Source: Gongronella butleri (Eukaryota > Mucoromycota > Mucoromycetes > Mucorales > Cunninghamellaceae). From it: a stretch of 64,000 bases of DNA. Below, in pieces: positions 7,991 to 63,414 of the stretch. The notes under the pieces were generated by a model, which worked only from the letters and a program-made list of their open reading frames with translations, made no database searches and was not told the DNA's origin. The stretch spans positions 1,089,078 through 1,153,077 of the forward strand of contig JAIWZP010000004.1 in the NCBI GenBank assembly GCA_025201375.1. The letters are read 5' to 3'. The translations under genes were made by a program, and so were the position numbers. Numbering within the stretch: position 1 is the stretch's first letter; each line of letters starts with the position of its first letter.

Positions 7991-8151
7991 GCTACAGTAC
8001 AAGCATGTCTTTTGCTCGGCACGCTCACACACACGCACACAAGGCACACAATAAAAGGGATGGATGCCATATTATCTTTATTAATGGATTGAGCGAGGAA
8101 AGAAAGAGAAAAAAAAAGAGGTAAACGCTGTACAAGGTATGATAAAAGCTT

Positions 8152-15978: not shown

Positions 15979-16029
<51 letters not shown>

Positions 16030-18870: not shown

Positions 18871-19506
18871 TCTTGAAAAATGACCAAGTAATAAACTTGC
18901 TCTCAAAAGGAAGTGTTAAACGGCCTCAATTTGAAGCAAGATGTGGTTGGACATATGGATGATAGGCTTGCAAACTTTTTTGACCATCGACTAATGTACT
19001 TGTGATGGGCAAAACGTGAAAAATAAAAATTAAAATGCACTCATCGTATCTAGTTTGCTGAGATTGCAGCAGAATCGTTAATGAGAACTCAGTATGAGTC
19101 GCTGTCGCGTGAAAAGCAAGAACTTGGGGCGAGAGATTGGTCAACTAACATCTTTGCTCGTTCAAAGGCTCATCTTGCTTGCAAATCAAGTAAAAAAAAA
19201 AAAATCGACCTTGCCGCCGAAAGAAATCATTGAGCCCGCCAAGCCTCGTGCTCTCGCCACGCGCGCGTTGCTTTGAACGCATCGACAAGCTCCACGCTGT
19301 TGTAAACATCGCCATGGCGAGTGTTTTCTTAAAATCGCTCAAACGTCGTGGAATTGATCCAATATACACACGTACGAGTGCCCGCTCTTCCAATAAGAAA
19401 AAAAAAAAAGGAACCTGCATAATTATTTTAATACCAAAAAAAGAAAAAAAAGAGTGCATGACGAGGGAGAGAGGGGGAAATGTCAAAAAGGGGGGATGAA
19501 AAGAAT

Positions 19507-21755
19507 CTAATTGTCGACGTAGAAGTAGTTGCCGCTGAGCTTTTGCTCCTGGTCCATTTGCGAGTCGAGCTTGTTGATACGAGGGCGGTAGTTGGTGGGG
19601 TCGCGGCGGAAGGTGACCTCGAGTGATTTCAAGAACGAGTTCATACCGGTAAGCAGCGATTGAGGCGCCGTGGCCGTGGCGTGGACGGATGGTGTACCTT
19701 CGTACAAGATCGTGCGCGACGCGAGGTAGCTTGCCATGCTATTTTGTTTTTGAAAGAAAGAAAGAAAAAAAAGGGCGAGATGAGCAATGTGTTTCTCGAT
19801 ATCTTTTCGCTTTTTCTGCTTTCTTTTTTGCATTTTTCTTACATGAAATCGTGCTCGACGATAAAGGCTGTGCGCTTAAAGTGGACGACGAAGCGTTTGA
19901 TGACCTTTGCGGCGATGATACGCTGTTCAGAGTCGAGGTAGGCCGAGGGCTCGTCAATGAGGTAAATGTCGGCGGGCTTGCCGAGGGCGAGAACAATGGC
20001 GACACGCTGCAATTCACCACCGGACAAGTGCATGACCTCCTGGTCGATGATGTTGTCAATGTTGAGGGGCTTCATGACGTCGGTGTTGAATTGCGGGTTG
20101 AGGAACGCGGCCTTGATCTTGCTGAGGAACAGCATGCGCACAGTGCCCTTGAATTTGGGCGAGATCTTTTGCGGCTTATACGACACATTGAGCTGCGGCA
20201 CCTGCTCGTCACCGTCGGCCTTCATCAGACCAGCAAGCATGCGGATAAACGTGGTCTTGCCAGTACCGTTTTGACCAAGCAGCACCACAATCTCAGAGTC
20301 AGTGAATTCGCCAGCCTCGACATCAAGCTTAAAGTCGCCCATCGTCTTGCTCATGCTCGGGTACGAGTAGTTGCGGTGCTTGGCAACGGCCTCCTCCTCG
20401 GCAACCTCACCAATGCGGAACGTCAGCGATTCTTCGCGGAAACGCAAGTTCTCCGTGCGAATGTTGCCGTCCAAGAAGATGTTGATACCGTCACGCACAG
20501 ACGCGGGCAAGGTCACCACACCGTACACGGATGGCATGCCGTACAGGATACACACATAGTCGGAAAGGTAATCCAACACGGACAAATCGTGCTCCACGAC
20601 AATGATATACCTATTTTTTTTGTTAAAAAAATGCCGTGTCGTGTCAGAACACGCCCCCAATGCACACATTGTTTTTTTTTATGCTTACGAATCAGAGCTG
20701 ATCAAGGAGCGAATGACCTTGGCGGCATTGAGACGCTGCTTGACATCGAGGTACGACGACGGCTCGTCAAACATGTACACATTGGCCTTTTGCACGGCGA
20801 CAATGGCAATGGCAAAACGCTGCAACTCACCACCGGACAATTGGCCGACCTCACGCTGCAAAACATCGCGCAGATCCAAATTGTCCAAGATATAATCCAA
20901 ATTGTCGCGTTCCAGCTTGTCCTCGAGCAAGGCACCGACCTTGCCGCTGACCACCTTGGGAATATGATCGACGTACTGGGGCTTGATGATGGCCTATGCA
21001 AGAAAAAAGCAAATCGCATCGCGTCAGCACCCTCTATTCCTTTTGATTGGTGATATTTCGTGATTTTTCTTCTTTTTTTCTTTTTTTTTTACCTTGAGGT
21101 TGTCTTCGAGGATTCTGGTAAAGTAATTTTGCAGCTCGGAGCCACGGAAGTATCTAAGGAGCTCTTCCCAATCGGGGGGATTATCGTATCTGCCAAGGTT
21201 GGGCTTCATCTTGCCCGAAAGGATCTTGAGCGCCGTGGACTTGCCAATACCGTTGGTGCCGACAAGACCGAGGACCTGGCCAGGGCGAGGCATGGGCAAG
21301 CGATGCAGCTTGAAGGAATTGGCCGAGTAGCGGTGCGTCACTTCGGATTCAAGATTCGTCGGCAAGTTGATGATGTGGATCGCGCCAAAGGGACACTTCT
21401 TCACACAAATACCACAACCAATGCAAAGCTCCTCAGAGATGAACGCGATCTTCGACGTGGGCTCGACTTCGATACAGAATTTACCTAAAAATTCAAAAAT
21501 CAGGGGGAAAAAAATGAGTTTCTCGAGCCTCAATTCGCTAGATGGCTCATTCAACTTACCCATGCGATTCACGGGGCACGAGCGCTTACTATAAAACAAA
21601 ACGAGTGGAGTGTTAGTGTGAGCCCCATTGGGCAACTTCATGTCAAAAAACGTCAGAATCATCGGCAATGAAGATGCTTACCATTCTTGTCGGCACTTCT
21701 TGGGCTTGCACTTGTCAGTGCTGACAATGGCAATACGAGTCAGCTTGTCACTCAT
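19507..21755 (-). CDS. RLI1: ABC-type ribosome recycling factor Rli1/ABCE1
   Basis: Six exons: 21755-21682, 21588-21560, 21484-21093, 20993-20689, 20610-19843 and 19738-19507, giving 599 residues (family about 600). The N-terminal Fe-S domain carries the two cysteine clusters, including [16 protein letters not shown]. Two nucleotide-binding domains follow: Walker [10 protein letters not shown] and GQNGTGKTT, signature LSGGELQR twice, Walker [12 protein letters not shown] and [11 protein letters not shown]. The C-terminus [17 protein letters not shown] and GNYFYVD is the standard ABCE1 tail. Known role: essential ribosome splitting, recycling and biogenesis in the cytosol. The introns all sit in loops between these motifs. 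Confidence 0.98.
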
Positions 21756-22160
21756 AGTACAAAAGTCAAAGAGAAAATAAAAAGAGGGGGAAAGAAAGGG
21801 GGAAAGGACAATACAAGGACAAGGGAAAAGAGGAAGAAAGAAAAAAATGAGAACCAGCAAACAATTCCTTTGTGAGGGGCCAAAGCCACTTTGATTTTGC
21901 GTCTCTCATGTTACCATTTAGGGTAAAAAGGCTCTCAAGTGCCTGCGGCAAGCCGTTTGGCCCAAATTTTTGGCCGCACGCCTGCCTTTTATGGGCAGAC
22001 GCGTTGATCCAAGACCCAGCAAGCGCAAGACAAAGAGAGAAGAGAAATTGACACGGCATTTAATCATATATTACAAGTACAAGTAAAAAGTAAAAAAAAA
22101 GAGAAAAAGAAAGCAAAAGGAAGGGAAAAAAAGGACAATGAGGCTCACGACGGCAAGGCT
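21756..22160. other. Intergenic between RLI1 and Bsd2-like gene
   Basis: Purine-rich promoter side of RLI1 and 3' flank of the upstream minus-strand gene. No gene or RNA seen. Confidence 0.45.
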
Positions 22161-23348
22161 CTACACCATGCTTTCAGCCGTGGCCGGTGCCGGCTCCTGT
22201 GAAATGATCGATTCCATCTTTTTGGCGCGTGTGTAGTCTGCAATGGCACGGATGATCAAAAACCAGCCGATGACCATGAGCACATAGGACAAAATGTCCG
22301 CATCCATGGCCTCCTCGGTGGCCTCGCTTGATGCGCCATTGTTGTTGTTGTCATTGTCGTCATCGCCTTCAACACCATCAGGCATCAGCGATTCCCCTGT
22401 GGAGAGAAAGAGAAAAAAAAAAAAGTCAAAAATGCGTCATTTGGGTTATCCGGTGGCAAGGAGAGGGGGAGCTTACGACTGCGAATGTAAAAGCCTGTTT
22501 GCACAAGCGAGACACCAAGACCGGCCAACGAGCCATTCTATGTGGAAAGAAAAAAAAGGAGTGAGGTCAATTCCACGTTGTGTCACCGAATCCAGATTCT
22601 ATATTTGGCGACGCTCTTTTTTTTTTTTCTTACCTTGGCAGCATGAGATGTATGTAATAAATAGGTGAGCATGAAGCCGACGAATTGGAAGCTGCTCGAC
22701 ACCAACAGGTTCCAGGCAAAGGACAAAATGTTGCCCACCGGTAGACCTTCGACAAGCACCATGTCGCCCATCCCCAAGGGCGCAATCACGGTCGTCTGCC
22801 AATAAGGCGGCGTGGCATCTTGTACGGCCACATCGTATGACTTATCAATATAAAAAAAAAGATCGGGTGAGCATGCGCGTGGCCTTCAATGGCTCTCAAT
22901 GAATCCATTCATGAAGGAAATCGATCACTTACGGGAGGCGTTTCGTCCACTTTGTTGCTTTCAGACTCGGGCTTGGCAGACATGTTTGAAAAGACGCCGT
23001 CATTTGAGGCGTGGAGGATGGCGGGTGTGCTGGACGTAGCGGCAGCGGCGTGCACCACTGGCTCAGCCGAATTGGCGTCGTCCGAAGCATGGTACAAGAG
23101 GTGCTGCTGCTCGTGGCTGTCTGTTCCGTCGTCAAATTCTTCGCCAAACGTATCCACAAGCTCGTCGCGTTGCTGCAACTGCCGCTGCTCAGGCAGACGG
23201 CTGCTCGTCGTGCTTGGTGGTGGGTGAGAACCAAGAGAACTTGTGTCGTCACTCGTAGAAAGCTGCAAAAAAAATAAGAAAAAAATGAGCATTCGTCTTT
23301 TTTTGCCCCTTTTTCTCGTTGTTTTTTTACCTGTTGGTATCTGGGCAT
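22161..23348 (-). CDS. Bsd2/NDFIP-like ubiquitin-ligase adaptor
   Basis: Five exons: 23348-23331 (only 18 nt), 23262-22933, 22840-22634, 22537-22477 and 22396-22161, giving 283 residues. The N-terminal half is polar and disordered. Then comes the NDFIP/Bsd2 membrane core: EGLPVGNILSFAWN, FQFVGFMLTYLLHTSHAAK, NGSLAGLGVSLVQTGFYIR and ILSYVLMVIGWFLIIRAIAD, i.e. three helices with the small polar residues typical of the family. Known role: Golgi/endosome adaptor that brings Rsp5/NEDD4-type ligases to transporters; yeast Bsd2 controls metal transporters. I do not see an intact PPxY motif, only Pro-rich stretches (SHPPPST and DATPPYWQ), of which PPYW is close. Its promoter region is shared with the Siw14-like gene. 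Confidence 0.85.
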
Positions 23349-23537
23349 TGGTAATAAAGGGAAAAGAGGCGTGGAAGGGAATGGAAAGCAAGGAAGGAAA
23401 AGGAAAGAAAATGAGAGAAATGAGAAATCGCCAAGGCAAAAGGAGGGCGGGCTTTATTTGAGCCCCCCAAACCTGGCGATTGGGCGCCCAAGCACGATTG
23501 CCAGCGTTTCTTTTCTTTTTCCCGACCACTTTTGGCC
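23349..23537. promoter_or_regulatory. Compact bidirectional promoter region
   Basis: Only 189 bp lie between the start codons of the Bsd2-like gene (minus) and the Siw14-like gene (plus). Purine-rich on the plus strand at 23370-23450. Any regulation is likely shared; this is an inference from geometry. Confidence 0.45.
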
Positions 23538-24534
<997 letters not shown>

Positions 24535-24823
24535 ATCCTAGATTTTCCATATATCCGCCCTTTTTTTTTTTTCCTTCGCATCATCCCCCAGCATTGTACA
24601 TAGCCCCCGCCGACTTGCTTCGAAATCAAATAAATGACGCCTTTTACTCATCACGCATCAACTGCGCAGCGGCGCGATCGCCGAGATTTCAAATCGAGCA
24701 GTAAATCGTCAACTTGCCTATTTTGTGCGCATGATGGGCCCATTTTTTTTTTCTTCCATGCAATTTCTGCAACTCGTCAGTACAAAAAGAAACTTGAGAA
24801 ACAACGACCGGGGGCCCAGCGCG

Positions 24824-24832
24824 TATATAAAA
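24824..24832 (+). promoter_or_regulatory. TATA box of the MDR oxidoreductase gene
   Basis: TATATAAAA lies about 75 bp before the ATG at 24906, followed by a pyrimidine-rich leader (24841-24900). This is the clearest core promoter in the window. Confidence 0.7.
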
Positions 24833-24905
24833 GTTTGCTTTTTTTCCCACCATTCTTCCTCTCTTTGTTTCTTTACTCCATCTTTTCTCTGTCTTTTACA
24901 CTATC

Positions 24906-25982
24906 ATGAAAGCTGCTGTTCTGCGTGAATTCGGCACACCGCTGGCCATTGACCCATTGTTCCCCGATCCTCAGGTGTCACGAGGCGCAGCCATTGTCAA
25001 GGTGCTTGCTGTGCCTGTGAGCGGGTTTTACAATGAGACCCTGCAGGGCGCATTGCCACTTCAATTGCCGATTATCCCTGGGTTCAGCGCGGTCGGCATC
25101 GTCGACGAGGTTGGGCCTGATGCCACGGACGTCAAGGTGGGCGACGTGGTGTTTGTGGATCCGACGGTGCGGTCGCGCGACAATGTATACAGCCAGGCAA
25201 CGATCATGCAGGGCTTTTTCGCGTTTGGCGGTGCACTGTCAGACACGTACCGGCACGGCGCATTCGCCGAAAAATTGCTCGCCCCACTTGAGAATCTGGT
25301 GCGAATCCCCACGTCGCTTGTCAACCAACTCGGCGCGCCAAAACTCACGGCCCTGAATCCGCTGCTTGTCGCACAAGGCGCGCTTACCAAGGGCAATTTT
25401 CGCGCGGGCCAAAATGTCGTGGTGCTCGGTGGCTCCGGCCACTTTGGCAGCGCTGTCGCCCTGCTTGCGCTCGTGTCAGGCGCGCGAAAGGTGATCATTC
25501 CCACACGCAACCCTGCAAAAATCGACACGATCAAAGCAAAGTTCGGCGACCGCGTCATCGCCGTGCCCATCAAGGACACGGAAGAAGAGAATGCTGCCGC
25601 GTTCCAGGCCGCTGCGGGCGGCAATGATGTACCCATCCATCTGGCGCTCGATTTTCTCGACACCACGGCGCCCATGGACCTCGTGGCCGCCGCCGTCCAC
25701 GCGCTCGCCGTCAATGGCACACTCGTTCTATACAGTGGCACCGTCGCTCCAATCACACTCCCATATTCGCCAATCATGCTCAAGGACCTGACCATCCGCG
25801 GTGGCTTCATGTACGACCGCGACGCGCCCGAGACCGTCCTTGGGCTTATCGAAACCGGGCAACTTGATCTCAACTTGTACGACACAAGCACCCAATTTCC
25901 ACTCGAAGATGCGACAAAGGCCATTGACGCGGCCAGCACCACTTCTGGTGCATTTTACATCACCGTGGTCACGGTGGACTGA
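24906..25982 (+). CDS. Medium-chain dehydrogenase/reductase, zinc-independent
   Basis: Single exon of 358 residues. An N-terminal GroES-like fold is followed by a Rossmann domain with the dinucleotide loop VVLGGSGHFGSAVAL near residue 175. The usual GHE motif of zinc alcohol dehydrogenases is replaced by PGFSAVGIVDEVG, and no catalytic Cys/His triad is seen, so it belongs with quinone-oxidoreductase-like members. Substrate unknown. The strong TATA box and lack of introns suggest a regulated, highly expressed gene, unlike its intron-rich neighbours. An ATTAAAT-like polyadenylation signal follows the stop at about 25984. Confidence 0.85.
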   Translation: MKAAVLREFGTPLAIDPLFPDPQVSRGAAIVKVLAVPVSGFYNETLQGALPLQLPIIPGFSAVGIVDEVGPDATDVKVGDVVFVDPTVRSRDNVYSQATIMQGFFAFGGALSDTYRHGAFAEKLLAPLENLVRIPTSLVNQLGAPKLTALNPLLVAQGALTKGNFRAGQNVVVLGGSGHFGSAVALLALVSGARKVIIPTRNPAKIDTIKAKFGDRVIAVPIKDTEEENAAAFQAAAGGNDVPIHLALDFLDTTAPMDLVAAAVHALAVNGTLVLYSGTVAPITLPYSPIMLKDLTIRGGFMYDRDAPETVLGLIETGQLDLNLYDTSTQFPLEDATKAIDAASTTSGAFYITVVTVD

Positions 25983-26039: not shown

Positions 26040-26600
26040 TTACACGTCTTTTTCAACGTGGCATTTTATTGAAAACCAGAGGTCAGTTGAGTCGTGCAGA
26101 TGAATCCAAAAAAAATATGATATGATACTGTAGCGACATTTTCAAAATTATACAAGTACGCACGTACAGTAACAATAATGCCTTGGCCAAATTCTTCTTC
26201 GATCGCAATGAAATTTGCACTGTTCAAATCAGACAGGCTCGGACGTGGGACGTCAGATCCAGAATGTACTGTATGTTTGCCCGATGATGCATGACTTTTG
26301 TACTGTTGTACGCTTGTGAAAGCCGTTCAAACATCGTTTCAAAATTTTCAACCTCAATCGATATTCTCGGCAACCGATATCATAGGACGACACACGGCGC
26401 TTTTAACATGTCAAAAGTACCTGCTGAATCTTTCTCTATCGAATGGGACTAGTTTTTCATTGATGGATGCTTGGATGGCCAAAACTCGCGGAGAAAATCC
26501 ACTTGCTTTTTCAACAAAATCTTATTACAGTATTAATGGTGATTTGCAGCGCTTTAGAAGTTTACAGTAGATTGGGTTTGAACATTAATTTTGCGTGGGT
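26040..26600 (+). repeat. Dispersed repeat family B, diverged copy with five heptamer scars
   Basis: Matches 28975-29395 and 57600-57990 in order (the TTGCCCGATGA block, then CTTTTAACATGTC, then TCGAATG-GACTAGTTT, then GAGAAAATCCACTT). TACWGTA heptamers lie at 26126, 26165, 26267, 26526 and 26563. Confidence 0.6.
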
Positions 26601-27518
26601 CATTAACTCATGATATCTGCAGTTGTTGTTGAGATATTGAGAGAAAAAGAAGATAAAAAAAGGGAAAACAGGAAACTGATTGAGAATCTGATACCGTTTA
26701 TTAAGAAAAAGTGAGGACTCTATTATATAGACAATTTGTAAAAACTAGGGTTTGGGATGTAAGATGCAAAGAAATGCTTCAATGAGTGGCTGTCAAGCAT
26801 ACAAGCGTTCCGAGGCATGAATTGAATATGAGCCGCGCTCAATCAGCGATTGAGCTGTTCCTCGGATATGCAAACGATGCAGAGATGATGGTTCCGTGGC
26901 ATGAATGCACAAGGGCGCGTAAAGACGCGTATGGCCAAGTGGGACATTGTGTGATCGCAAGCAAATGAGAATTTTTATTATTTATTTTTTTTTTTTTTAT
27001 TTTTCTCAGGCTTGCATCTGCCCAGATCCTGGTCAATGCAATCTCTGATCATACATAGCGAATGAGGCATCTTAGCATGGGTGCGTACAAGAGAGCAAAT
27101 GAGGGAAAGGGTGCGCTATCCTTTCATGTATGGTAAAATCGCGATTAAAACGTAAAGACCTGGCGACAGCAGCCATTGTGTGAGCGGGGCTTAATTAGCC
27201 AGACTAGGTAAGTGCCCGGCCATCTGGATTTGAATCCAGGGATGCGGCACAGAGAATGCACGACGCGATTTGCATCGCGTAGCTTTATTTCTTTTTTTTT
27301 TTTTTTCACAACTTGTGAAATACCAGTCCAGACACGGCCAGCGCGTCAGACTTAGGGTAATCGCACATTCTCTTTCACATGGATGTGTCCATTGTGATTT
27401 TTACTTAATGAGATCACGCTCTGCAAGCAGCAAATACAACAGTTGTTGTATGATAATATACAGTAATAGCCCACCTGACCCCCTTGCAAAATCGTTAGAA
27501 AATCCTCATTTATGAAAA
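26601..27518. other. Intergenic, low-complexity and short repeats, no gene
   Basis: AT-rich with T runs at about 26985-26999 and 27292-27305 and one TACAGTA at 27459-27465. A tRNA T-arm-like stretch at about 27218-27236 does not fold into a tRNA. Confidence 0.45.
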
Positions 27519-29395
27519 TCAACGCTGCTCACTATCAAGTGCCCGCCGCTCCATGATTATTCTTGATTTCATTTGTTCGTTTTGGCTACTGGCTTCTCGG
27601 AAACAAAGTAAAAATCGGGGGTTGATCAGGTCGTTGACGAGAAAATCAAAATTTCTCTAGAAATTTACAATTTCTGCCCTGTCGTGCTAAATTGTTATTC
27701 GAGCATGCTGAAAACTCAAAAGTAAAAAGAGACGCGCGCGGCAGTCATTTTATTTTAGTCTGGCAAAGCTGATGCGCAATCTTTGTACACCTGCGACGCC
27801 AGATTTGAAATTTCAACTCCAATTTTCTCGGGAAGGAACAATGTAACCCACGGCAATCTTGCAGTGACAAAAGATGCAGAATTTGATTCTCTGTCAAATG
27901 GAATCAATTTCACTAACGGGCGACCAAAACTGGATAAGAAATTCAAGTTTTTAAAATTTGACGTTGATCGAATTTTTCTCGAGATCCGTCTCGTCAACTC
28001 CCAAATTTTCTTGCAGATTTGCTTGAAAGAGGGGGTCGATGCATCTAGTGAAGTGACTCTCAAAGCGCTGGTGCATAGGCTGCCAAACGGATTTGGATTT
28101 TCTGTCTGGAATTGAACCTCTCAAGCGGGGGACCCTCCAGATCCATTTTGACCTGAGCACCAAGCAACTTTTTTTCCGAAATTCGTAAAATCATTTCACC
28201 ACAAAGACTCGTCGCAACGCCACGAAACTTGCCGAACTATAGTTTTTGGCTCCTCTCTTTTCATAAAAAAATTAAAACCCCGAGGTCGCTCGAACAGCTG
28301 GTTCCGCGAGCGACTTGACATTGCTGATATTTTGGCTGTAACGCAGTTTTCGAAAAATCAGTTCGCAGTAAAATCGTGCTTCAATCACCACTAAACTTGA
28401 CATCCTGTATTTTTTAACGCTCCTCTTTCCAGAAAAAAATAAAAACCAGAGGTCGCTCTGGCCGTTGTCAAGACATGCACTGATTTCATGATTTTTCACA
28501 AAAAAAATGGTAATACAGTAGGCTGCCCCAAAACATAATTGGATCGGTACCAAAAATTGGCCATTTGGTGATTTTGGCACGTCAACTTACCGGTATAAAG
28601 TAACTTTAAAACCAGTGGGTGATTTGGCTGTCATTGGCAGTTTTTAAATTTTGGCATTTTTTCATGATGATTTTCACCAGTCTGGAGGTTATCCAAGGCT
28701 CGCTTGAATGGCTCGCCTTGGTTGTAAACAATGGTTAATTACGCGGATGTGCACATTTGTATAATCATGGAGGTGTCCCCAATTTTCTACATCCAGAATG
28801 TGCACAGACATCCAAAAAGATGGTACCCTGGATTTTTAAAAATGGTATTATTCACGCGGGATAGCCATTGGTAGATATTTGCCATGAATTATACAAATGT
28901 GCACATCCGCGTAATTAACCATTGTTTACAACCAAGGCGAGCCATTCAAGCGAGCCTTGGATAACCTCCTCTATAGTAGTGCTCTTAAGGACCACAAACC
29001 ACCATTCCAAATCTACATGCTGGGTTATTTCGGGTCCTTCTTTTCCTAAAAAAACGCTTAAAAACCAGAGGTCTGCTTGGTCGTTGTGCAGATGAATCCA
29101 AAATGTCGTTATTTTCAAAAATTTAGCAAGCAAGAGGCCTCAAAATATTTTGTGGAGCACCGTGCAAATGACACCGATCGAAAGAGACGCACTTGATTGT
29201 CATTTTTGGATTGTTTGTTTGCCCGATGAACGAACTTTGCACGCTTGCGAAAGTCGATCAAACATTATTGGATTAATTTCAAACTCACTTGTCTCGACAA
29301 CCGCAAAAACAACTAACAGTGGTTTTAACGTGCCTTAGACAGCTGCTGAATCTCTATCGAATGAGACCAGTTTCATCAATGGATGGCCAAAACTA
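27519..29395 (+). repeat. Dispersed repeat family B, copy 1 (left part)
   Basis: Collinear with 55395-55836 and 57081-57960. The pair provides a direct comparison of sites with and without small insertions. This copy is itself interrupted by a foldback element (28684-28969) and, immediately after, by a solo LTR (29401-30058), beyond which the repeat resumes. No intact protein is encoded. Confidence 0.7.
28684..28969. mobile_element. Foldback MITE with 87-88 bp terminal inverted repeats
   Basis: Left arm 28684-28770 and right arm 28882-28969 are near-perfect inverse complements (one base gap), starting GGAGGTTATCCAAGG. The spacer is 111 bp and non-coding. TCT flanks both ends (28681-28683 and 28970-28972), a possible 3-bp target duplication. 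The partner repeat at about 57510 lacks the element, which confirms an insertion. Confidence 0.85.
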
Positions 29396-29400
29396 CTCGC

Positions 29401-30058
29401 TGTGATGATCCTCTGCTGGACCGTCCTCTTGCTGCGGTGTTGGGGCCCAACGGGCCAGCGTCTCGGGCGCAAGCACGGAGCGCAAAGTGGGGCGGCGACG
29501 GGCCACGTCGACGGCCCGTTTAACAACGAGACGTTCGCGACGTGGTTGTTGTTGTGCGTGGCGTGAAGCAGCGCCACGGATATGGCGAGCGGGGCGCTCG
29601 TGGACTCTATTGGCAGGACGCATCTTGATATTGGTGACAGACAAGGAATTTTTATTGTAATACAGTAGCAAGAGGGGGGTTCAGGGGAGGAGAAACGGTG
29701 TTAAAAGGGTAAAGAAAAAAAGAAAAGAAAAAAAGGGGAAAAGGAAAGTGGCGGGTCTTTTATGTGCGACAAGGCCAATTGGTCTGCAGCCTTGGCGCAC
29801 AGACAGATCGAGATTCCAGCGGCGCAGCAAAAGGAGAAAAAGCGGGGCAAAGGAGAAGATCGGCCATTGCTCGATGGGGAGAGCAGCTACAAACTTGTAA
29901 GAGAGCGCGTTTGAAAGCCACGAGCCATGGCCAGATGATGGTGTTGGAACTGGGCGGCGGCCAAAGGAAAAGAGAAGGACTGGAAACAAAAAGGAACGAA
30001 AGGGAGCAAGAAGAAAAAAAAAGAGTTGTGGACAATGCTCACGAATTGGATCGTGACA
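29401..30058. mobile_element. Solo LTR (658 bp) with 5-bp target duplication
   Basis: Begins TGTGATGATCC and ends GGATCGTGACA, an imperfect 11-bp inverted pair with TG...CA ends. It is flanked by CTCGC on both sides (29396-29400 and 30059-30063). The flanks join into the continuous family-B repeat seen at about 57950. The weak minus-strand ORF (29393-29671) rich in Arg/Pro/Gln reads into it and is not treated as a gene. One TACAGTA lies inside at 29661-29667. Confidence 0.85.
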
Positions 30059-30063
30059 CTCGC

Positions 30064-30760
30064 AGAGAAAATCCACTTTTTCATCAAAATCTTTGACCGC
30101 GGTTTGTCTGACAACGGCCTTGTTGACCCCCAATTTTTATTGCAGTTTCACTAATAAACAGGGAGCAAAGCATTTAATGGAATGACTTGCGGCGCGCTAG
30201 CTTGGGTTTTAACTTTTTGCATCCGGTCATTTCACCAAGCAAGCTGCAGCCCACTCATCAGTGCACAAAAATGTGCAAAACAAAAATAAAATAAATACTG
30301 TACAAGAAAAAAAATCCATGCAATTTACACACCTTAATTTGGAAGTGCCAAACCTTAAATTTTTGCAAAACAATCTTGTCCAAAGTAGGCACTTTTCTCA
30401 GTCGATCGCCGTTCATGCGTCACTCTGCGCATTTTTCTCAAGTTGGGGCGATCTGGTATTTTGTCTGCCAAGAGCAACTTGTCGGAGTTGTCTGTTTGGG
30501 ATGCATTGATCACTCGGAGTTTGAAATTTCCCAAATTTGGCATTTTCTGAGATTGAAATGTGTGACCCCTGAGTGACCCCTGAGTGACCCCTGAGTGACC
30601 CCTGAATTTTTCAAAAGTGGTCGTAGCGCTTTGGGGGTTTAAGCTTTTTTGTTGCAAATTTTGCGCTGAATGCGTTGCAGCTATTTTTGAGTGGGGCCGA
30701 CCATGCAGGTGATGAGATGAATGCAAGATAAGACAAATACTGTATGATACAGTATGGCAT
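30064..30760 (+). repeat. Dispersed repeat family B, copy 1 (right part)
   Basis: Continues the copy cut by the solo LTR; collinear with 57960-58640. It includes three full tandem units of TGACCCCTGAG (30559-30602) where the partner copy has about two. Heptamers lie at 30296, 30738 and 30748. Confidence 0.7.
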
Positions 30761-30769
30761 TTTTGGAAT

Positions 30770-31810
30770 TGCTTAGCTGATTTGTTAATACTGTAATACA
30801 ACAAGAAGATATCCCTCTTCTTCCGCCGGGGACACATCTTCAGGTGTTATGCCCGCAAAGCCAAGATTCACGCCATGCATTTTTTTTTCTGGATTACCTT
30901 TTTCTTACGCGCTCCTGTGCCATCCCTCCTCAAGGCTGTCCCCTTCGCGCGACCGCTCTTAGCTCCTAATTCCTGATGGACAACACCAATGCATGATGAC
31001 CCAACCTCCTAACATGCAATTGACCCTTAACATGGCGTTAAATCCCCTTTTTACTGATGGATCCTTCAGATCCATCATCTTGACTCACCTGTAGATACGA
31101 CCCCCTATTTTCCCTTGATCCTTAGAGTATAAAAGGACATCCGCACAGCGCATGTCCTTCCTTTTTCCCTTATCTCTATAATCACATATATACCAATCCA
31201 CACACCCTTGCTTCTTCTTGAGTAATAAAGTCCTTATTACAATGATCTCTCCTATCAATGCTGTCCCCGTCGTGCCTGTGGCCCCGGTGCCCTTTTGTGG
31301 GCACAACATCAGGTGGCGGTGGACAATCTGTCGGCCAGGGCCTATCATACAGTATCATACGTACCGTACCTCGACAAGTTCGGGGGACGCGTTGTTCTGC
31401 GGTGCTGAACCAGCAGGTGCGTGGCTCTTCTTCAGAATTGGAAGAAGCATCATTGTTTCCAGAATCGAATCCATCTCGCGACGATTTTCGTGCCCTCGAA
31501 GTTCATCCGGTCGACGCGCCATCTCGCCGGCGGATGATCAACGAGACGGAGTGGCGCCTGCCTCCTCGCGACCTCGCCACACCTTCCAGCGCCTGAACGA
31601 GCTTTGGGGTCCATACCATGTGGACCTACTGTATTTGCATCGGCGACGACGACTCACCTTCTCCCCCTCCTGTACGTCTCGAGGACCCACGACCCTCTTA
31701 TTACTGTATCCCTCCCGCCCTCCTCCTGCTTTGTCTTTTCCTCTGTTTGCTCCTCTCAGGGATGACTTTTGCCCCTTTTCCCTATTTCTTTCTCTTTTAT
31801 TATTCGAATT
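30770..31810 (+). pseudogene. DIRS-like retroelement fragment (RNase H region), broken
   Basis: Split by the solo LTR at 30845-31308. Downstream of it, pieces read ETEWRLPP and FQRLNELWGPYHVDL, the conserved tail of the RNase H region of DIRS/Ngaro-type retroelements, where VDLF normally follows. At that exact point a TACTGTA (31627-31633) adds five bases and shifts the frame. Other heptamers lie at 31348 and 31702, and stops occur in all frames. No complete reverse transcriptase is present. Confidence 0.55.
30845..31308 (+). mobile_element. Solo LTR (464 bp) with 5-bp target duplication
   Basis: Starts TGTTATGCCC and ends GGGCACAACA (inverted pair, one mismatch). TCAGG flanks both ends (30840-30844 and 31309-31313). 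It contains TATAAAA at 31128-31134 and AATAAA at 31224-31229, consistent with U3-R-U5 organisation in plus orientation. Confidence 0.9.
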
Positions 31811-32589
31811 AAATAAAGCTCGGAAAGGTTGAAACCCAGTGCAGCAGCCCTCTCTGCATAATCAGCAAGTCCAATGCTTCACTAGCAGGAGTACTGTATG
31901 TAGGACGTTGTTACGGATAGAAAAGCACGACAATGCAAATAAAAGTCGTCGCCGTGACATGCTGCTGAGACAAACTAGATACGTAGTTACGTACGAGCGC
32001 CAATGCGGGAATATCATACTGTACACATGCATGACAAAAGACGGACAGGTTGAAAAGCGGTCCCGCTACAGTAAAAATGCCATTCTCCATTAATAAGTCG
32101 CACATTTACATAGCACCAATGCGCTACTGTATCTGATCGCTTTTGCTCAACACATACTGTACCTGTATGCCATGAAACTCGCCCTACAACTGATGCCTAT
32201 ACACGTGCACTAAAAGGCGCTTTTCAATATCCAATGTGTACCAGGTACATCAAGGTGTCATGTCAGAAACGGTCGTTTTCGCGTAAGTGTTCCTCTTTTT
32301 TTTTTTTTTTACTAGGCATCACTTGCGCTCTGTTGAACGCGAAAAAATGTAATAACGCAGGGGCCATTCTGTAAAGAAGATAGGACAGCTAAAACGCGTA
32401 AAATTGTGGATTTGATGATTTTTGTACAAAGAGCTGTGATCTGTGGAAGAGAAAAAAAGGATTCATGCGTTCCGACGCGCTTGTTAGCTTCGGCGCCAGC
32501 GGTGACTAAAATAAGCCCAGGTCGCCATTGACCCTGAATCCCCCTTTTCTCCCCTTTTTCTCCCTTTTTCTCTTGTTTGCCTTCCCTCC
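31811..32589. other. Intergenic with clustered TACWGTA heptamers
   Basis: Heptamers at 31892, 32017, 32067, 32125 and 32155. From about 32530 the sequence becomes a pyrimidine-rich leader to the ATG at 32590. No gene seen. Confidence 0.5.
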
Positions 32590-46993: not shown

Positions 46994-47734
46994 GCTACGA
47001 ATAGATTGTTTTCAAAAAAGGTTGAATTTATGCATAAAATCCACATCGCTTTGTCTTTTTTTTTTTTTTGCTGTTTCACACGCTCCTCTCGAATTGGGCA
47101 AATCAAAACAAGTCTTGGGCCGGCGTAACCCACGCGGGGCGCCTCCATGCGCTTGCGCGCTTGGTGCGACGTGGCTTTTTACAGAAAGCAAAATGGGCGG
47201 GAAATCATGCAGCCTTGCCGTCTTGATAGCCAACATGAGGTCGTTTCAAGCGCGTGGTCACTTGAGGCTCGTGAAAATAAAAAGGGGGACGCGCGTCGCG
47301 CTAGCTCAGCCTGTCGGGTCTGTCCAAATGGAGCCCTCATCTCGTTTTGAGCTCACACGCGCGGAATGGCGGGTTGGTCTTGGTCCCATCGTGACTGTAG
47401 GACCAAGATTGTTCCAGACGAAGCTAGATACTTCTTGAAGCATCATGCTAAACCGACATCACGAGATCCAGAAGAAGATGCCCAGCGTGTCAGAGACCAA
47501 ACAACCCCACAATTGCTATTTTGTCATATTTTGTTTTTTTTTTTTTGGTAATTCTTGTCCTACTTACCCTGGAAAACTCCGCTTGTACCAACAATTCTAC
47601 GCTTTCTTGTTCAAATGAGCCCACTCTTGCGGATCGTTGGAGGCCGAGCAAGGGCCATTTTTTTGGTTCTGCGTTTCTCTACTGTACATACTGTAGCAAA
47701 CTCGAATACAGTATCATCGGGAATTCTTACAGTA

Positions 47735-48830
47735 AGACTGAGTGATCCGATGATTCGCGAAAAAAATTAACACTGCTGAAGAATCGGGTCTATCATTACA
47801 GTAACTGGTCCAAATTTGGGACCACAGGAGCAAATTTCTGATGAAGCGCGCAAGCGCCAGTTTCATACATAGGCGTAAAGGGGGTAAGATCAGCAGCATT
47901 TGGTCTCGTACGGTGACAACGGCTGAGCGCCCCAACGCGAGAGTCACCTCAAATGAATCGGCAGCTAAACGCGGTAAAAGCGCTTGTATGTGATTTGGGG
48001 ATATCGCTTCCAGTTCTGGGCGATTATTTAATCTTTAGGAGTCGTTTTGACCCCGGTTTTGCCCTGAAACTATGCAAAATGCATTTTCTCAGGACTCAGT
48101 GATCCGATTTGTGAAAAATATTGGAACCAACGAATTTTTGGGTCCAGTATCCACTAGTCTAAATTTGGCCCCAGGTGGTCAAGCTGTTCAGGAGAAACGC
48201 GTAAAATATTATTTGACGCTGGGTTTTCACCAGCAAACACGAATCTCGAGATTTCTCGCGACTGAGTGATCCGATTCGCGAAAAAAGTTAACACAGCTGA
48301 AAAATTGGGTCTACCATCAACTGGTCCAAATTTGGGACCAAATGAGCAAGTTTCTGATGAAGCGTCAGTTTCATAGGCGTAAAGGAGGTACGATCAGCAG
48401 CATTTCGTCTCGTACCGCAGCAACGGCCGGACGCCCCAACGCGTGAGACACCTCAAATGAATTAGCGGCCAAACACGGTAAAGGCGCTTGTGGTTTTGGG
48501 CCATCGCATCGAGATCTCGGCGAGTTAGCCTTTACGGGGCCGGGGTCTATTTGGCCCTGCTGATTTTATGATATGAAAAATGCATGGTCTCAGGACTGAG
48601 TGATCCGATTTCTGAAAAAATTTGTCATCGTTGGCATTTTATGTTCAGCTTCTTCTAGCTCAAATATAGGACCCGATGAACAAGATCCGGGCGATGCACC
48701 CTGCAGCTGGTAAAAGACAGCGGCCCAACGTATCGAGCGCGAGTCACTTCAAATGAATCTGTGATCAAAGACGGTAAAAGCGCTTGTGTTTTGGAAACAT
48801 TGAGTTGAGATCTGGGCAAGTTGGAGTGCA
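47735..48830 (+). repeat. Dispersed repeat family D, tandem imperfect copies
   Basis: Copies start with ACT-AGTGATCCGAT at about 47735, 48094 (partial), 48261 and 48593. The 47735 and 48261 copies align over about 330 bp (AACTGGTCCAAATTTGGGACC; GGCGTAAAG; CAGCAGCATTT; CGCCCCAACGCG). A reverse-oriented piece occurs at about 55085-55180. Non-coding. Confidence 0.65.
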
Positions 48831-54859: not shown

Positions 54860-55394
54860 AGATTTTTATTGCAATTACATTGGTGAATCCGTCGTGTTTT
54901 ACTATGTATATGGATGGCGCATCGATCTGTGGACCTAAATTTCGCGTCTTTCAACTCTTCGACTGTACCCCTACGAAGAGTCGCCATTTTTAAAAATACG
55001 CGTTTCTCCCGATGGATCGGACCATACAGTATGACTCCATAATTAGATCAGTGGATACTCGACTCAAAAATCCGACAATGTCAAGTCTTTCCAGAGATCA
55101 GATCATCACTCAGTCCTGAGAAGAAAATGCATTTCGTATTAATTCAGGAGGGTACAGTAACAGGGTCAAAATCGCCTATTGTCGAAACAGCGGACAAAAA
55201 CGCAGCGAACTACATTTTTTACCAAAATCAGATACCGGTACCTGGCCCTTGATTTTTATTTTATTTTCGTAGACAAGCAAGGAATGTTTACCCAGGGTGT
55301 GACTGGCGCAGCGATCCGAGGACCTAAATTTTACTGCCCCAAAATGCTGACCGACCCGCGACCCCCTTGCAAAATCGCTAGAAAATCACAATTT
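54860..55394. repeat. Mixed short repeats (families C and D)
   Basis: Family C blocks at about 54862-54945 and 55245-55330 and a reverse family D piece at 55085-55180. TACAGTA at 55025 and 55153; TACCGGTA at 55233-55240. Confidence 0.45.
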
Positions 55395-55836
55395 ACTAAA
55401 TTCAGCAAGGCCCGCTACTGAGTGCCCACCGCTCCATGACCTTTAATGTCATTTGTGCATTTTGATTTTTGCTGCTCGGAAACAAAGTAAACCCCGGGTG
55501 TTGATCTGGCCGTTGGCGAGGAAATCTATATTTTTCTAGAAATTCACAATTTCGATCATGACGCGCTAAATTGTTATTTGAACGGGCTAAAAACTTACAA
55601 GTGGAAACGGGCGCGCACGTTGGTCATTTTATCTTAGCCTGGCAAAGCCGATGCGCAACCTTTGTACTGTACACTTGAAACGCCAGATTTAATATTTCAA
55701 TCCCAATTTTTTCGGCAATGAACAAGCCAACCCACAGTACAATCGCAGTGCCAAAAATGCAGAAATTGATTCTCTGTCAAATGAGACCAGTTTCACTGAC
55801 GGGCGACCAAAACTGGTCAAGAAATTCAATTTATCT
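55395..55836 (+). repeat. Dispersed repeat family B, copy 2 (left part)
   Basis: Collinear with 27519-27940 (GGAAACAAAGTAAA, TTTCTAGAAATT-ACAATTTC, CTGGCAAAGC-GATGCGCAA). Interrupted at 55837 by the DIRS-like element. TACTGTA at 55665-55671 is absent from copy 1. Confidence 0.7.
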
Positions 55837-56143
55837 CTTAACGCCCTAGCTTTAGCGACGGGCTTACTATAAGACACTATCAGTCTGCTCCCTCTGGGTT
55901 TTCAATCTTCTCCGATTTAATGAACAAGCACAAAAGAAATTTTTGAGAGCGCCCTGGATGCAACTCTATCTTTTCTGAAGTGAACAAAAAGGAACAAAAA
56001 AATCAACAAACTACTGTAGAAGGAGGGGGGAGGGTCATGCACCGGAGCAGACTGCTAGTGTCTTATAGTAGTACAGTAAGCCCGTCGCTAAAGCTAGGGC
56101 GTTAAGATATAAGACACAGCGCAGTCTGCTCCCTCTGGGTGTC
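55837..56143. repeat. Inverted-repeat terminal structure of DIRS-like element
   Basis: A roughly 56-bp arm (55837-55892, CTTAACGCCCTAGC ... CAGTCTGCTCC) is inverted at 56044-56107 with one heptamer-bearing insertion in the right arm. A third copy of the CAGTCTGCTCCCTCTGGGT end is directly repeated at about 56122-56140. About 150 bp separate the arms. The arrangement recalls the split inverted/direct termini of DIRS elements. Confidence 0.6.
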
Positions 56144-57077: not shown

Positions 57078-57080
57078 CCA

Positions 57081-58640
57081 TACGGTAGTTTTTGACTCCT
57101 CTCTTTTCAGAAAGAAATTAAAACTCAGAGGTCAAACAGGTCGTTCCGCGAGCGACTTGACATTGCTAAAATTTTGGCCGTAACACATTTTTCAATACTG
57201 TAAATCATTTCGCGGTAAAATCATGCTTCAATCACCACCAAACTTGACATCCTTTATTTTTTAGCGCTCCTCTTGTCAAGAAAAATAAAAACCACAGGTC
57301 GCTCTGGCCGTTGTCGAAACATGCACTGATTTCACGATTTTTCACAAATGGCAATATTGACTGCCACAAACCATAATTGGCTCGGCGCCAAAATTAGCCA
57401 TTAGGTAGTTTTGGCACGTCAACTTATAAAGAAACTTTAAAACCAGTGGGTGATTAGGCTGTTGTTGGCAATTTATAAAATTTTGGCATTTTTTCATGGT
57501 TTTCACCAATCTAGTCTTAAGGATCACAAACCATGGATTGATTGTCCCTCCAAATCTACAAGTTATTACAGTATGTTACTGTATTTCGGATCCTTACCGG
57601 TATTTCCCTAAAAACGCTTAAAAATCAGAGGTCGACTTGGGCGTTGGGCAGATGAATCCAAAATGTCGTTACAGTATTTTCACAAATTTAACACAGGGGC
57701 TCAAAATATTTTGTGGATCGCCATGATGCAAATGGCACCGGTCGAAAGAGACACACTTGACTGTCATTTCCGGATTGCTTGTTCGCCCGATGAACGAACT
57801 TTGCACGCTTGCAAAAGTCGATCAAACATTGGATTAATTTTCAAACTCACTTTTCTCGACAACGGCAAAAACAACCAACAGCGCTTTTAACGTGTCGTAA
57901 GAAGCCGTTGAATCTCTATCGAATGAGTCAGTTTCATCAATGGATGGCTAAAACTCACAGAGAAACTTCACTTTTCCATCAAAATCTTTGATCGTGCTTT
58001 GCTCGACAACGGTCTAATAAACCTGTGATTTTTATTTCAGTTTTACTAAAAACAGGGATGCAAAGCATCTAATGGGATGAGTTGCAGTGCGCTAGCTTGG
58101 GTTTGGCTTTTTGGATCGGTCATTTCACCAGGCTCCAGCCCACTCATCAGCGCATAAAATTGTGCAAAATAAAAAAATAAAAAAATAGGAAAAAAAAATT
58201 CCATGCATTCCACATACTGTACCTTAATTTGGAAGTGTCAAACCTTAAATTTTTGCAAAAAATCTTGGCCAAAGTAGGCACTTTTCTCAGTCGATCGCCG
58301 TTCATGCGTCACTCTTTGCGCATTTTTCTCAAGTTGGGGCGATCTGGCATTTTGTCTGCCAATAGCAAATTGTCGGAGTTGCCTGTTTGGGATGCGTTGA
58401 TCACTCGGAGTTTGAAATTTTCCAAAATTGGCCTTTTCTGAGATTGAAATGTGTGACCCCTGAGTGACCCCTGAATTTTTCAAAAGTGGTCGTAGCGCTT
58501 TGGGGGTTTAAGCTTTTTTGTTGTAAACTTTGCGTTGAATTCGATGCGGCTATATTTGAGCGGGGTCGACCATGCAGATGACGAGATGAATGCAAAACAG
58601 TACAAATACAGTAGAAAGTTTTCGGAATTTTCGAATCCAA
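57081..58640 (+). repeat. Dispersed repeat family B, copy 2 (right part)
   Basis: Collinear with 28230-29395 plus 30064-30750. It lacks the MITE and the solo LTR of copy 1 but carries heptamers at 57196, 57567, 57577, 57670, 58215 and 58607 and a TACCGGTA at 57595-57602. Confidence 0.75.
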
Positions 58641-59226
58641 AAAAATTGGACGGGTTCGTCTTGAGCAATGGACCGTAGTTTAAGCCGTGACGCGTTTTAC
58701 ATTGGTGGGCAAGTAATAAGCTGTAAAAAAAATTCTGGAGGCACAGCAGGCCGACAAAGTCTAAAAAACACGCTCTTTGGATTTTAAAAGGTAAACGTGC
58801 ACGTTTTTGTGCAGTGTATGATAGCGCGATGTTTCAGACATTATTAAAATGATACTGAGCACAGTATGATACAGTAGCACGCGTCAGTTTCTGTCCAGTG
58901 AGATTGAAACCTGGACAGATCAGTCATCATTATTATACTGTATTTGTGGTGAAAATCGCATTTACTGTCTAATTTTTTTAATTGGAGACAAGGAATTACA
59001 GTAAAGGTCTGAAGACAGTGCATGAAAAAAATGGTGGCGCATGTTTGTGAGCTGCCCTTTGCCGCTTTGAGTACGCGCATTGGAAAAGATCCTCTAGAAA
59101 TGCTTATTGTGATTTCTTTTTGTCTCTCTCCAACGTCTGGACGGATGCATGGATCGCATCATCATCTTCTTGATCTGATTTATTATCAAGTTTAATAAAA
59201 AGTAGCTATTCACGTTGTGTCGTTGT
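58641..59226. other. Intergenic, 3' side of recombinase gene
   Basis: Contains TACWGTA at 58870, 58937 and 58997. No gene seen. Confidence 0.45.
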
Positions 59227-62303: not shown

Positions 62304-63414
62304 TCGATGAAAATTTCAATGAGGAGAATATTTTGGCCCTTCTGTAAAAAAAATTAGCCTGAAAATTAGCACCAGAGGCATCTTTAACAGACATTAAGGT
62401 GCTCAATGTTTTATTTAGAGGCGATTGAAATCAAATCTGAGCGATTTCTGCCGCGATTAGCCTCAGCAAAGGGTAAAGGAGCGCCATTTAAGACTACAGT
62501 CAAATGACGCTCTCTGTCTCTTTGTTTGCTCTGGAGTGTCCGTTTTGGTCATTGAACGTGCTCGTTCGCCTCGCATTCATGATGCTCTGTGGTAGTGAGC
62601 AGCGTGCTGGCCTTTCCATGTGATTTAAAGGCAGAACTGATCGTTTTCGAGAATTGGCGTGAAGTCAACTTGGCGACGCCACATGACATCAAGGATTTTC
62701 TACGAGTTCGCGGTCGTCATGTCGCGCAAGGGCGTTTTCTTATTGTTTTTTTTTTTTTCTTACTGAATTTGCGATTTACGAGCCGCTTGACCCTACAGTA
62801 TCATGACCATCATTTTGCGCTTTTTTACGTTTGTCGATGATTATCATAATGACAATACGACTTGTTCCCTTTTTTTTTTTATCATTCCACAAAAACCGAT
62901 CATCACCACGTACTGCAATTCTGAGAGTCGAGAATCGGTCCGAATATCTAAAAATACACTTTACAGCCGTATTCATACACGAATACTGCATCGACAGCCA
63001 TTGCAACACAAAATACAGCTGATTTAGCGACAAAGATTGTGCCCCATGAATGCGCGACTGGCGACGCTCCACCTTCCTAATAAGGCAAGTCCAAGCCTAG
63101 AATTCTCAAGGCAAAGCGCGTTTTTTTTTTTTTTTTTTGGTCGCAATGGTCCATTGCGCCAAAAGGAAGCTTTCAAATAAGAATTGGAAGCGTGTATGAA
63201 CGGTAAAATGTGAAGATGGCCGAAAAAAAAACAAGGTCGATTGGTGCTGACAGGCGGACAATGTCGAAAACATTGACAAGTGCAGAACACTGTGTGTGGG
63301 GCGGGCTTTTGGCCATTTAAAAATGTCCCGCCTGGTGGGCTCGGCGTCCTTTTTACCTCTTTTTCTTCTCTGTCCTCCTTTCTTTTGTTCACCACCTAAT
63401 ACACTTTATAATAT
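62304..63414. other. Intergenic, no gene seen
   Basis: Short open frames only. TACAGTA at 62794-62800. T runs at 62747-62759 and 63121-63138. An ATAATATATG stretch lies at the start of the next gene. Confidence 0.45.

What the first reader, a model, noticed from the sequence alone, without database searches (positions are those of the whole stretch)
26126..32161. Block 1: Tc1/mariner excision footprints (TACAGTA/TACTGTA) cluster in the repeat graveyard
Twenty heptamers lie in 6 kb: 26126, 26165, 26267, 26526, 26563, 27459, 28514, 29661, 30296, 30738, 30748, 30789, 31348, 31627, 31702, 31892, 32017, 32067, 32125 and 32155. Window-wide I count 41 against about 8 expected for two 7-mers with equal base use, and none in an annotated host exon. 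TA + CAG or CTG + TA is the known scar left when Tc1-family elements (Sleeping Beauty type, ends CAG...CTG) excise and the 3-nt overhangs are filled with an A:A or T:T mismatch resolved either way. Both forms occur about equally (22 CAG, 19 CTG), as that mechanism predicts. This implies many dozens of excisions across the genome.
Basis: partly seen in the sequence, partly recalled or inferred. Interest (0 to 1): 0.92.

Follow-up and report, generated by a model that had tools for sequence, protein, structure and literature searches.

The report
Thousands of transposon excision scars
The odd seven-letter words look like scars left where cut-and-paste transposons jumped out, and this fungal genome appears to hold thousands of them, far more than the transposons found that could have made them.

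Summary
All 20 heptamers are where stated; the window has 41 against 1.27 in dinucleotide shuffles. The 22:19 ratio proves nothing: TACAGTA and TACTGTA are reverse complements. Decisive are indels between repeat copies: of 55 clean 5-bp indels, 31 are TA-flanked, and all 31 insert CWG (24), TSA (5) or CSG (2) plus TA. A plain-TA empty partner exists for 70 of 77 informative CWG sites and 12 of 116 other TA-NNN-TA sites. Genome-wide (33 Mb) TACWGTA occurs 16,213 times, control TAGWCTA 554. A candidate source exists: near-identical Tc1 elements with ends TA[CAGTGCCC...GGGCACTG]TA and a Sleeping Beauty-like transposase. Two more scar classes occur: TACSGTA, matching CCG...CGG elements, and TATSATA, source not found. 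Unexplained: all 35 held ends of the CAGTG and CCGTMCCC families that do not abut another element have a CWG or CSG unit just outside their TA, and scars form 5-bp chains. Host probably Gongronella butleri. Excision itself, or a full-versus-scarred locus, was not seen.

The parts
26126..26132 (.). CWG scar TACTGTA
   Evidence: exact match; its one alignment is ambiguous
26165..26171 (.). CWG scar TACAGTA
   Evidence: exact match; its one alignment is unclear
26267..26273 (.). CWG scar TACTGTA
   Evidence: exact match; 2 empty alignments, 1 unclear
26526..26532 (.). CWG scar TACAGTA
   Evidence: exact match
26563..26569 (.). CWG scar TACAGTA
   Evidence: exact match
27459..27465 (.). CWG scar TACAGTA
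   Evidence: exact match
28514..28520 (.). CWG scar TACAGTA
   Evidence: exact match; paralogue near 57350 lacks the word but the alignment is unclear
29661..29667 (.). CWG scar TACAGTA
   Evidence: exact match
30296..30302 (.). CWG scar TACTGTA
   Evidence: exact match; 4 empty, 4 ambiguous, 10 unclear alignments
30738..30744 (.). CWG scar TACTGTA (with 30743-30749 TATGATA and 30748-30754: chain CTG-TA-TGA-TA-CAG)
   Evidence: sequence; alignments unclear
30748..30754 (.). CWG scar TACAGTA
   Evidence: exact match
30789..30795 (.). CWG scar TACTGTA
   Evidence: exact match
31348..31354 (.). CWG scar TACAGTA, followed by TATCATA
   Evidence: exact match
31627..31633 (.). CWG scar TACTGTA
   Evidence: exact match
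31702..31708 (.). CWG scar TACTGTA
   Evidence: exact match
31892..31898 (.). CWG scar TACTGTA
   Evidence: exact match
32017..32023 (.). CWG scar TACTGTA
   Evidence: exact match
32067..32073 (.). CWG scar TACAGTA
   Evidence: exact match
32125..32131 (.). CWG scar TACTGTA
   Evidence: exact match
32155..32161 (.). CWG scar TACTGTA
   Evidence: exact match
7993..7999 (.). isolated TACAGTA, may be chance
   Evidence: exact match; 0.36 expected in 1-26099
47680..47803 (.). five CWG scars (47680, 47689, 47707, 47728, 47797)
   Evidence: exact matches; 47797 has 4 empty alignments and 1 ambiguous
55025..55031 (.). CWG scar TACAGTA
   Evidence: exact match; alignment unclear
55153..55159 (.). CWG scar TACAGTA
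   Evidence: exact match
55665..55671 (.). CWG scar TACTGTA; paralogue near 27786 is empty (ctttgTAcacc)
56012..56018 (.). CWG scar TACTGTA
   Evidence: exact match
56072..56078 (.). CWG scar TACAGTA
   Evidence: exact match
57196..57202 (.). CWG scar TACTGTA
   Evidence: 4 empty alignments, 1 unclear
57567..57583 (.). two CWG scars (57567, 57577)
   Evidence: exact matches; alignments unclear
57670..57676 (.). CWG scar TACAGTA; paralogue near 29110 is empty (cgtTAttttca)
58215..58221 (.). CWG scar TACTGTA
   Evidence: 13 empty, 1 full, 4 ambiguous alignments
58607..58613 (.). CWG scar TACAGTA
   Evidence: empty alignments among unclear ones
58870..58876 (.). CWG scar TACAGTA
   Evidence: 1 empty, 2 unclear alignments
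58936..58942 (.). CWG scar TACTGTA
   Evidence: exact match
58997..59003 (.). CWG scar TACAGTA
   Evidence: exact match
62794..62800 (.). CWG scar TACAGTA followed by TATCATG
   Evidence: exact match

Best explanation
Most TACWGTA words here are the repaired donor sites of excised Tc1/mariner elements of the Sleeping Beauty type. The element had inserted at a TA (duplicated to TA...TA) and had ends CAG...CTG (or CTG...CAG). The transposase cut the transferred strand at the TA and the other strand 3 nt inside, leaving 3-nt 3' overhangs on the chromosome. Joining these pairs C:G, W:W and G:C, and repair fixes the W:W mismatch either way, giving TA-CWG-TA. Shown here: the 5-bp insertions at TA between paralogues; their strict sequence (CWG, TSA, CSG); plain TA in the empty alleles; elements with CAG...CTG and CCG...CGG ends. 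Inferred: excision as the cause, the overhang chemistry, and which family made which scar. Scars often abut, because an insertion into the TA of an older scar would leave another 5-bp unit (inferred).
For: Precise indels: 31 of 55 clean 5-bp indels are TA-flanked, and all 31 fall in three classes whose outer bases are complementary, as overhang pairing requires: CWG 24, TSA 5, CSG 2. Three of four 10-bp TA-flanked indels and one 25-bp indel are two and five stacked units. Sites with an empty (TA) partner: 70 of 77 informative CWG, 23 of 35 TSA, 5 of 5 CSG, 12 of 116 other TA-NNN-TA. With alignments of at most 95% identity and duplicate flanks removed: 67 of 72, 20 of 21, 5 of 5 and 12 of 66. 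Direction: inside family A elements (99% identical) a CWG unit lies at the same TIR site in L039:5926 and L040:4171, each with 20 empty alignments and 1 full, probably one shared event. Target TAs of CWG scars are moderately A/T-rich, and CAG/CTG is not among the twelve commonest neighbours. Genome counts: TACWGTA 16,213, TAGWCTA 554. Elements: 1338-bp copies with TA[CAGTGCCCGGAC...] ends; transposase with HTH_Tnp_Tc3_2 and DDE_3, only PDB hit Sleeping Beauty SB100X, E 3e-29. SB leaves a CAG footprint at TA (passages of PMC8151067).
Against: No locus was found with a full CAG-ended element in one paralogue and its scar in another. Of the 41 window sites 16 had a usable alignment; 9 showed an empty allele and 7 were unclear; in the finding's own block 2 of 6. 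Over all held sequence 133 of 210 aligned CWG sites were unclear; the stricter count found an exact empty partner for 19 of 127. The resident CAGTGCCC elements do not sit at plain TAs as the scars do, so they may not be the makers of the single scars. TSA scars have no matching element in the sequence held, about 1% of the genome. 12 empty partners fall in other classes (AAA 4). Scars copied with repeats inflate the number of events. In rice clean footprints are rare after excision (8 of 94; passage of PMC4423477).
Confidence: 0.9

Rival explanations
1. TACWGTA is a bound or structural DNA motif (for example a dyad binding site) selected or spread in repeats.
For: It is palindromic apart from the middle base and clustered in repeat blocks.
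Against: Where it can be aligned it arises by whole 5-bp insertion at unrelated TAs, not by point changes; two further words of the same TA-NNN-TA design but other letters behave alike; flanks share nothing evident.
Confidence: 0.03
2. The words are ends of tiny inserted elements (MITEs starting CAGTA or CTGTA) or slippage of a CWGTA microsatellite rather than excision scars.
For: Chains of 5-bp units occur (TACWGTACWGTA 1,613 times, reversed control 12), and neighbours 8-10 bp apart occur (51 pairs).
Against: 308 of 561 chains are one CWG unit alone; empty alleles show plain TA; TA-flanked indels of the three classes are 5 bp or multiples; the middle base varies between neighbouring units.
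Confidence: 0.05
3. The scars were made by other, now rare or lost, CAG...CTG elements; the present CAGTG and CCGTMCCC elements only home into multi-unit scars.
For: 35 of 35 held ends of these families that do not abut another element have CWG (34) or CSG (1) just outside the TA, 33 with TA beyond it; family A 1 of 21. 174 of 237 TACAGTGCCC words genome-wide are preceded by TACWG (reversed controls 51 and 0). Single scars sit at plain TAs.
Against: Around four of 18 resident copies (two in L042, L047, L034) aligned paralogues carry no unit at that site, so two earlier lineage-specific scars would be needed each time; these paralogues are diverged (about 66-79% identity), do not always keep the TA, and L047 has a CWG scar a few bases from the L034 site. 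Double chains are ten times rarer than singles.
Confidence: 0.3

Closest known systems
Sleeping Beauty / Tc1 excision footprints (TA-CAG-TA or TA-CTG-TA)
   Same: Same 5-bp scar at TA, CAG...CTG element ends, transposase related to SB100X (CAG footprint: passages of PMC8151067).
   Different: Here a genome-wide excess of about 15,700 words in 33 Mb, two further scar classes and multi-unit chains. The related zebrafish element ZB left 0-3 bp (passage of PMC7913693).
Stowaway MITE footprints in Triticeae and DNA transposon excisions in rice
   Same: TA-flanked elements leaving short TIR fragments at TA; one insertion beside an existing footprint (passages of PMC1925063); genome-wide survey of excisions in rice (passages of PMC4423477).
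   Different: One intron, or 94 excisions of which 8 were clean and the rest had deletions or filler; here thousands of uniform scars.
Fungal Tc1-like element impala (Fusarium)
   Same: A fungal Tc1 transposon (named so in a passage of PMC3464196).
   Different: Its footprints are recalled only; nothing on them was read here.
Euplotes Tec elements and Paramecium IESs
   Same: Tc1-like, TA-flanked; Tec circles have a junction of two TAs separated by 10 bp of partly heteroduplex DNA (passage of PMC3464196).
   Different: Developmental excision, precise for IESs. Here scars stay in the genome.

Membership tests
Tc1/Sleeping Beauty-type excision footprint | 3 nt of the element end plus a second TA inserted at a TA | tested here: met
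   31 of 31 TA-flanked clean 5-bp indels are CWG, TSA or CSG plus TA
Tc1/Sleeping Beauty-type excision footprint | middle base ambiguous, outer bases complementary | tested here: met
   Outer bases: the indel classes are CWG, TSA and CSG. The ambiguity of the middle base cannot be tested by the CAG:CTG balance, since the words are reverse complements
Tc1/Sleeping Beauty-type excision footprint | same site seen full, scarred and empty | tested here: inconclusive
   Scarred and empty seen; full versus scarred not found
Tc1/mariner element (1338-bp family B) | TIRs flanked by TA | tested here: met
   TA[CAGTGCCCGGAC...GTCCGGGCACTG]TA
Tc1/mariner element (1338-bp family B) | HTH plus DDE transposase domains | tested here: met
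   PF01498 E 9e-16, PF13358 E 7e-16; PDB 5cr4 Sleeping Beauty E 3e-29
Tc1/mariner element (1338-bp family B) | DD34E catalytic spacing | not tested
   Motifs MEDGA and NPIEN are visible in the frame but were not aligned to a reference
Tc1/mariner element (1338-bp family B) | transposition activity | not testable with these tools
   Seven copies 99.7-99.9% identical to the eighth suggest recent movement

The most novel reading that the evidence does not exclude
The CAGTG and CCGTMCCC elements are tied to their own scars. All 35 held ends that do not abut another element have a 5-bp scar unit just outside their TA, with the middle base differing between copies that are otherwise 99.7-99.9% identical. 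Either the elements home into multi-unit scars, so that each jump builds a better landing site (a self-reinforcing hot spot), or the outer CWG-TA is carried by the element and its middle base is redrawn each cycle through a mismatched junction, for example in a circular intermediate like that reported for Euplotes Tec elements. A slight excess of equal middle bases on one strand (42 of 68 end pairs, p = 0.07; 37 of the 58 pairs under 1.1 kb, p = 0.05) hints at the second, weakly.
Probability: 0.55. Interest if true: 0.85.

Novelty: new variant of a known kind. Interest (0 to 1): 0.74.

Why it matters
Scars outnumber the elements found with a matching end by about two orders of magnitude: some 15,700 excess TACWGTA words against 237 TACAGTGCCC words, at most about 120 two-ended copies; other CAG-ended families may exist. 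If the scar letters name the ends of the element that left, the TA-NNN-TA spectrum of a genome is a fossil record of past cut-and-paste activity, possibly including families now rare or gone (TATSATA). Element copy number would then badly understate transposition history, and 5-bp scars could serve as insertion/excision markers and as a reporter of repair at W:W mismatches. The link between resident elements and scar units makes target choice testable.

Tried and rejected
Equal numbers of CAG and CTG as support: rejected, reverse complements. Reversed-pattern controls of the genome search (6,355 for TACWGTA, 1,031 for TATSATA, 9,577 for TACSGTA) are poor because they lack the TA-NNN-TA frame; TACSGTA (1,999) is in fact below its reversed control. 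TAGWCTA (554) was used for TACWGTA; no matched control was run for the other two. A 7-bp target duplication around resident elements: rejected because the middle base differs between sides in 26 of 68 pairs. A TCA...TGA-ended source of TATSATA in held loci: the listed pairs were mostly inner parts of long foldback repeats. DDE_1 transposases: three matches with stops, loci not cut out. Joined flanks of 18 resident elements against held sequence: four gave usable empty sites. DDE_3 loci L001-L015: no TA-flanked TIRs in the flanks held. An earlier tally of '34 of 34' ends counted 3 that abut another element; recounted. Literature: ten searches listed no paper that, by title or abstract start, reports genome-scale Tc1 footprint accumulation; passages were seen of PMC8151067, PMC7913693, PMC3464196, PMC4423477 and PMC1925063. 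The first indel script returned no alignments, probably for its gap costs, and was repeated.
Full report
OBSERVATION. All 20 heptamers lie at the listed coordinates and the window holds 41. Dinucleotide shuffles of the window give 1.27 on average, largest 6 of 100. Both words rank first of 420 anagrams. Block 26100-32200 has 20 against 0.23 expected from local first-order composition, and block 55000-59100 has 14 against 0.15; 8152-25982 has none, with 0.21 expected. Flanks differ from site to site. TACAGTA and TACTGTA are reverse complements, so the 22:19 split carries no information.

WHOLE GENOME. The window is part of a 33.0-Mb assembly in 110 contigs. TACWGTA occurs 16,213 times there and the equally built TAGWCTA 554 times. 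TATSATA occurs 9,529 times and TACSGTA 1,999; these two have only the reversed-pattern controls (1,031 and 9,577), which lack the TA-NNN-TA frame, so the CSG excess genome-wide is not established by counts. In 264 kb held (window plus 20 stretches of 10 kb chosen around transposases, hence biased) TACAGTA/TACTGTA have the highest observed/expected of the 7-mers seen at least 100 times, 58-fold. In the 200 kb of transposase stretches the TA-NNN-TA classes are CAG 439, TCA 215, AAA 60, CCG 37, median 11; in the window CAG 41, AAA 15, TCA 13, median 3.

INDEL TEST. Repeats in the held sequence were aligned with each other. Of 810 clean insertion sites (1,037 alignments of at least 75% identity), 55 are 5 bp long; 31 of these are TA-flanked and all 31 are CWG (24), TSA (5) or CSG (2) followed by TA. 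Three of four TA-flanked 10-bp insertions are two such units in a row, and one 25-bp insertion is five. A site-based test scored each TA-NNN-TA word against its aligned partners as 'word present' or 'plain TA'. CWG: 210 sites aligned, 77 informative, 70 with an empty partner. TSA: 85, 35, 23. CSG: 11, 5, 5. All other classes: 175, 116, 12, of which AAA 4 (Fisher p 2e-31 for CWG against the rest, which treats related sites as independent). Dropping alignments above 95% identity and duplicate flanks: 67 of 72, 20 of 21, 5 of 5 and 12 of 66. A stricter column-based count gave an exact plain-TA partner for 19 of 127 CWG, 7 of 52 TSA and 2 of 7 CSG sites, and 30 of 329 for all TA-NNN-TA together, so 2 fell outside the three classes. 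In the window 16 of 41 sites could be aligned: 9 have empty partners, 7 are unclear. Direction is clearest inside family A elements, where a CWG unit at one TIR site is present in L039 and L040 and absent from 20 aligned TIR copies for each. The target TAs are moderately A/T-rich; CAG/CTG is not among their twelve commonest neighbours. This is what insertion and excision of TA-targeting elements would leave; a binding site or slippage explains it poorly.

ELEMENTS. DDE_3 has 74 and HTH_Tnp_Tc3_2 37 matches in the genome, many in frames of equal length and score. Family A: 1634 bp, 212-bp TIRs, ends TA[CCGTGGCTC...]TA, 11 copies examined; 20 of 21 ends have no CWG outside. Family B: 1338 bp with its TAs, ends TA[CAGTGCCCGGAC...]TA, eight copies 99.7-99.9% identical plus two at 86%. 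Family C: ends TA[CCGTACCCTA or CCGTCCCCTA...]TA. A non-autonomous foldback family of about 1.0 kb shares the CAGTGCCC end; 58 of 68 end pairs are under 1.1 kb apart. Family B and A transposases match Sleeping Beauty SB100X in the PDB (E 3e-29 and 1e-48); relatives of the B transposase include fungal proteins of Puccinia, Mucor and Entomortierella. The end trinucleotides CAG and CCG match two of the three scar classes. No TCA...TGA element was found in the sequence held.

CHAINS AND THE ODD FLANKS. TACWGTACWGTA occurs 1,613 times genome-wide, its reverse 12. CWG, TSA and CSG units mix in chains, and spacing 5 dominates neighbour distances (187 pairs). Of 32 chains of two or more CWG units in held sequence, 10 touch an element end and 22 do not. 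Held ends of the B, B-like, foldback and C types number 38; 3 abut another element; all other 35 have CWG (34) or CSG (1) directly outside the TA, 33 of them with TA beyond it. Genome-wide 174 of 237 TACAGTGCCC words are preceded by TACWG (reversed controls 51 and 0, so part of the 237 may be background). The middle base of this outer unit differs between near-identical copies (genome-wide 72 CAG and 100 CTG views, p 0.04 for equality). Where the repeat around a resident copy has empty paralogues (four of 18 copies examined), these show no unit at that site, but they are diverged, do not always keep the TA, and in one case a CWG scar lies a few bases away. Two readings remain: homing into multi-unit scars, or an outer unit carried along with its middle base redrawn each cycle. 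Homing needs earlier scars that the paralogues lack; carriage needs a source of variation. In 68 end pairs the two sides carry the same letter on one strand 42 times and the mirror 26 times (p = 0.07; 37 of the 58 short pairs, p = 0.05). Euplotes Tec circles with a partly heteroduplex TA-flanked junction are a precedent for a mismatched junction (passage of PMC3464196).

COMPARISON. SB leaves a CAG footprint (passages of PMC8151067). In rice 8 of 94 putative DNA transposon excisions were clean, the rest had deletions or filler (passage of PMC4423477); Stowaway footprints in one Triticeae intron are 1-4-bp TIR fragments, with one insertion beside an older footprint (passages of PMC1925063). Uniform scars in the thousands were not described in anything listed in ten searches, judged by titles and abstract starts.

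HOST. A paralogue of the window's oxidoreductase, named Gongronella butleri, lies on a contig of 527,591 bases, the length of contig C22 of this genome; Mucorales, Cunninghamellaceae. This is an inference from a contig length.

LIMITS. Fungal relatives were not checked for the same scar load.

Noticed in passing
genome; window 30743-30749, 31353-31359 and others: A second scar class, TATCATA/TATGATA (9,529 genome-wide), is TA-flanked and often abuts CWG scars, but no TCA...TGA-ended element was found in held sequence.
   Followed up: partly
L031-L050 and window: TACGTA is 4.4-fold over a first-order model, eight other TANNTA words 0.5 to 2.1-fold; it may be a scar that lost the mismatched middle base.
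   Followed up: no
L040:1484-2494, L041:3197-4205, L042:3170-4175: A family of about 1-kb foldback elements sharing the CAGTGCCC end with family B; 58 end pairs under 1.1 kb among those listed genome-wide.
   Followed up: partly
L008-L013: A DDE_3 gene family (312-336 aa frames) lies 0.6-19 kb from contig ends in near-identical copies, without TA-flanked TIRs in the flanks held; perhaps subtelomeric.
   Followed up: partly
window 56102-56914 (-) and 59227-60948 (-): Two long frames in the repeat block without Pfam match, the first also without a PDB match; the first reads like a tyrosine recombinase to me (recall only).
   Followed up: partly
window 30562-30605 against 58453-58474: An 11-bp unit GTGACCCCTGA is present four times in one repeat copy and twice in its paralogue.
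   Followed up: no
L041:3197-5541: A foldback element and a family B element abut, sharing one TA at 4204-4205.
   Followed up: no
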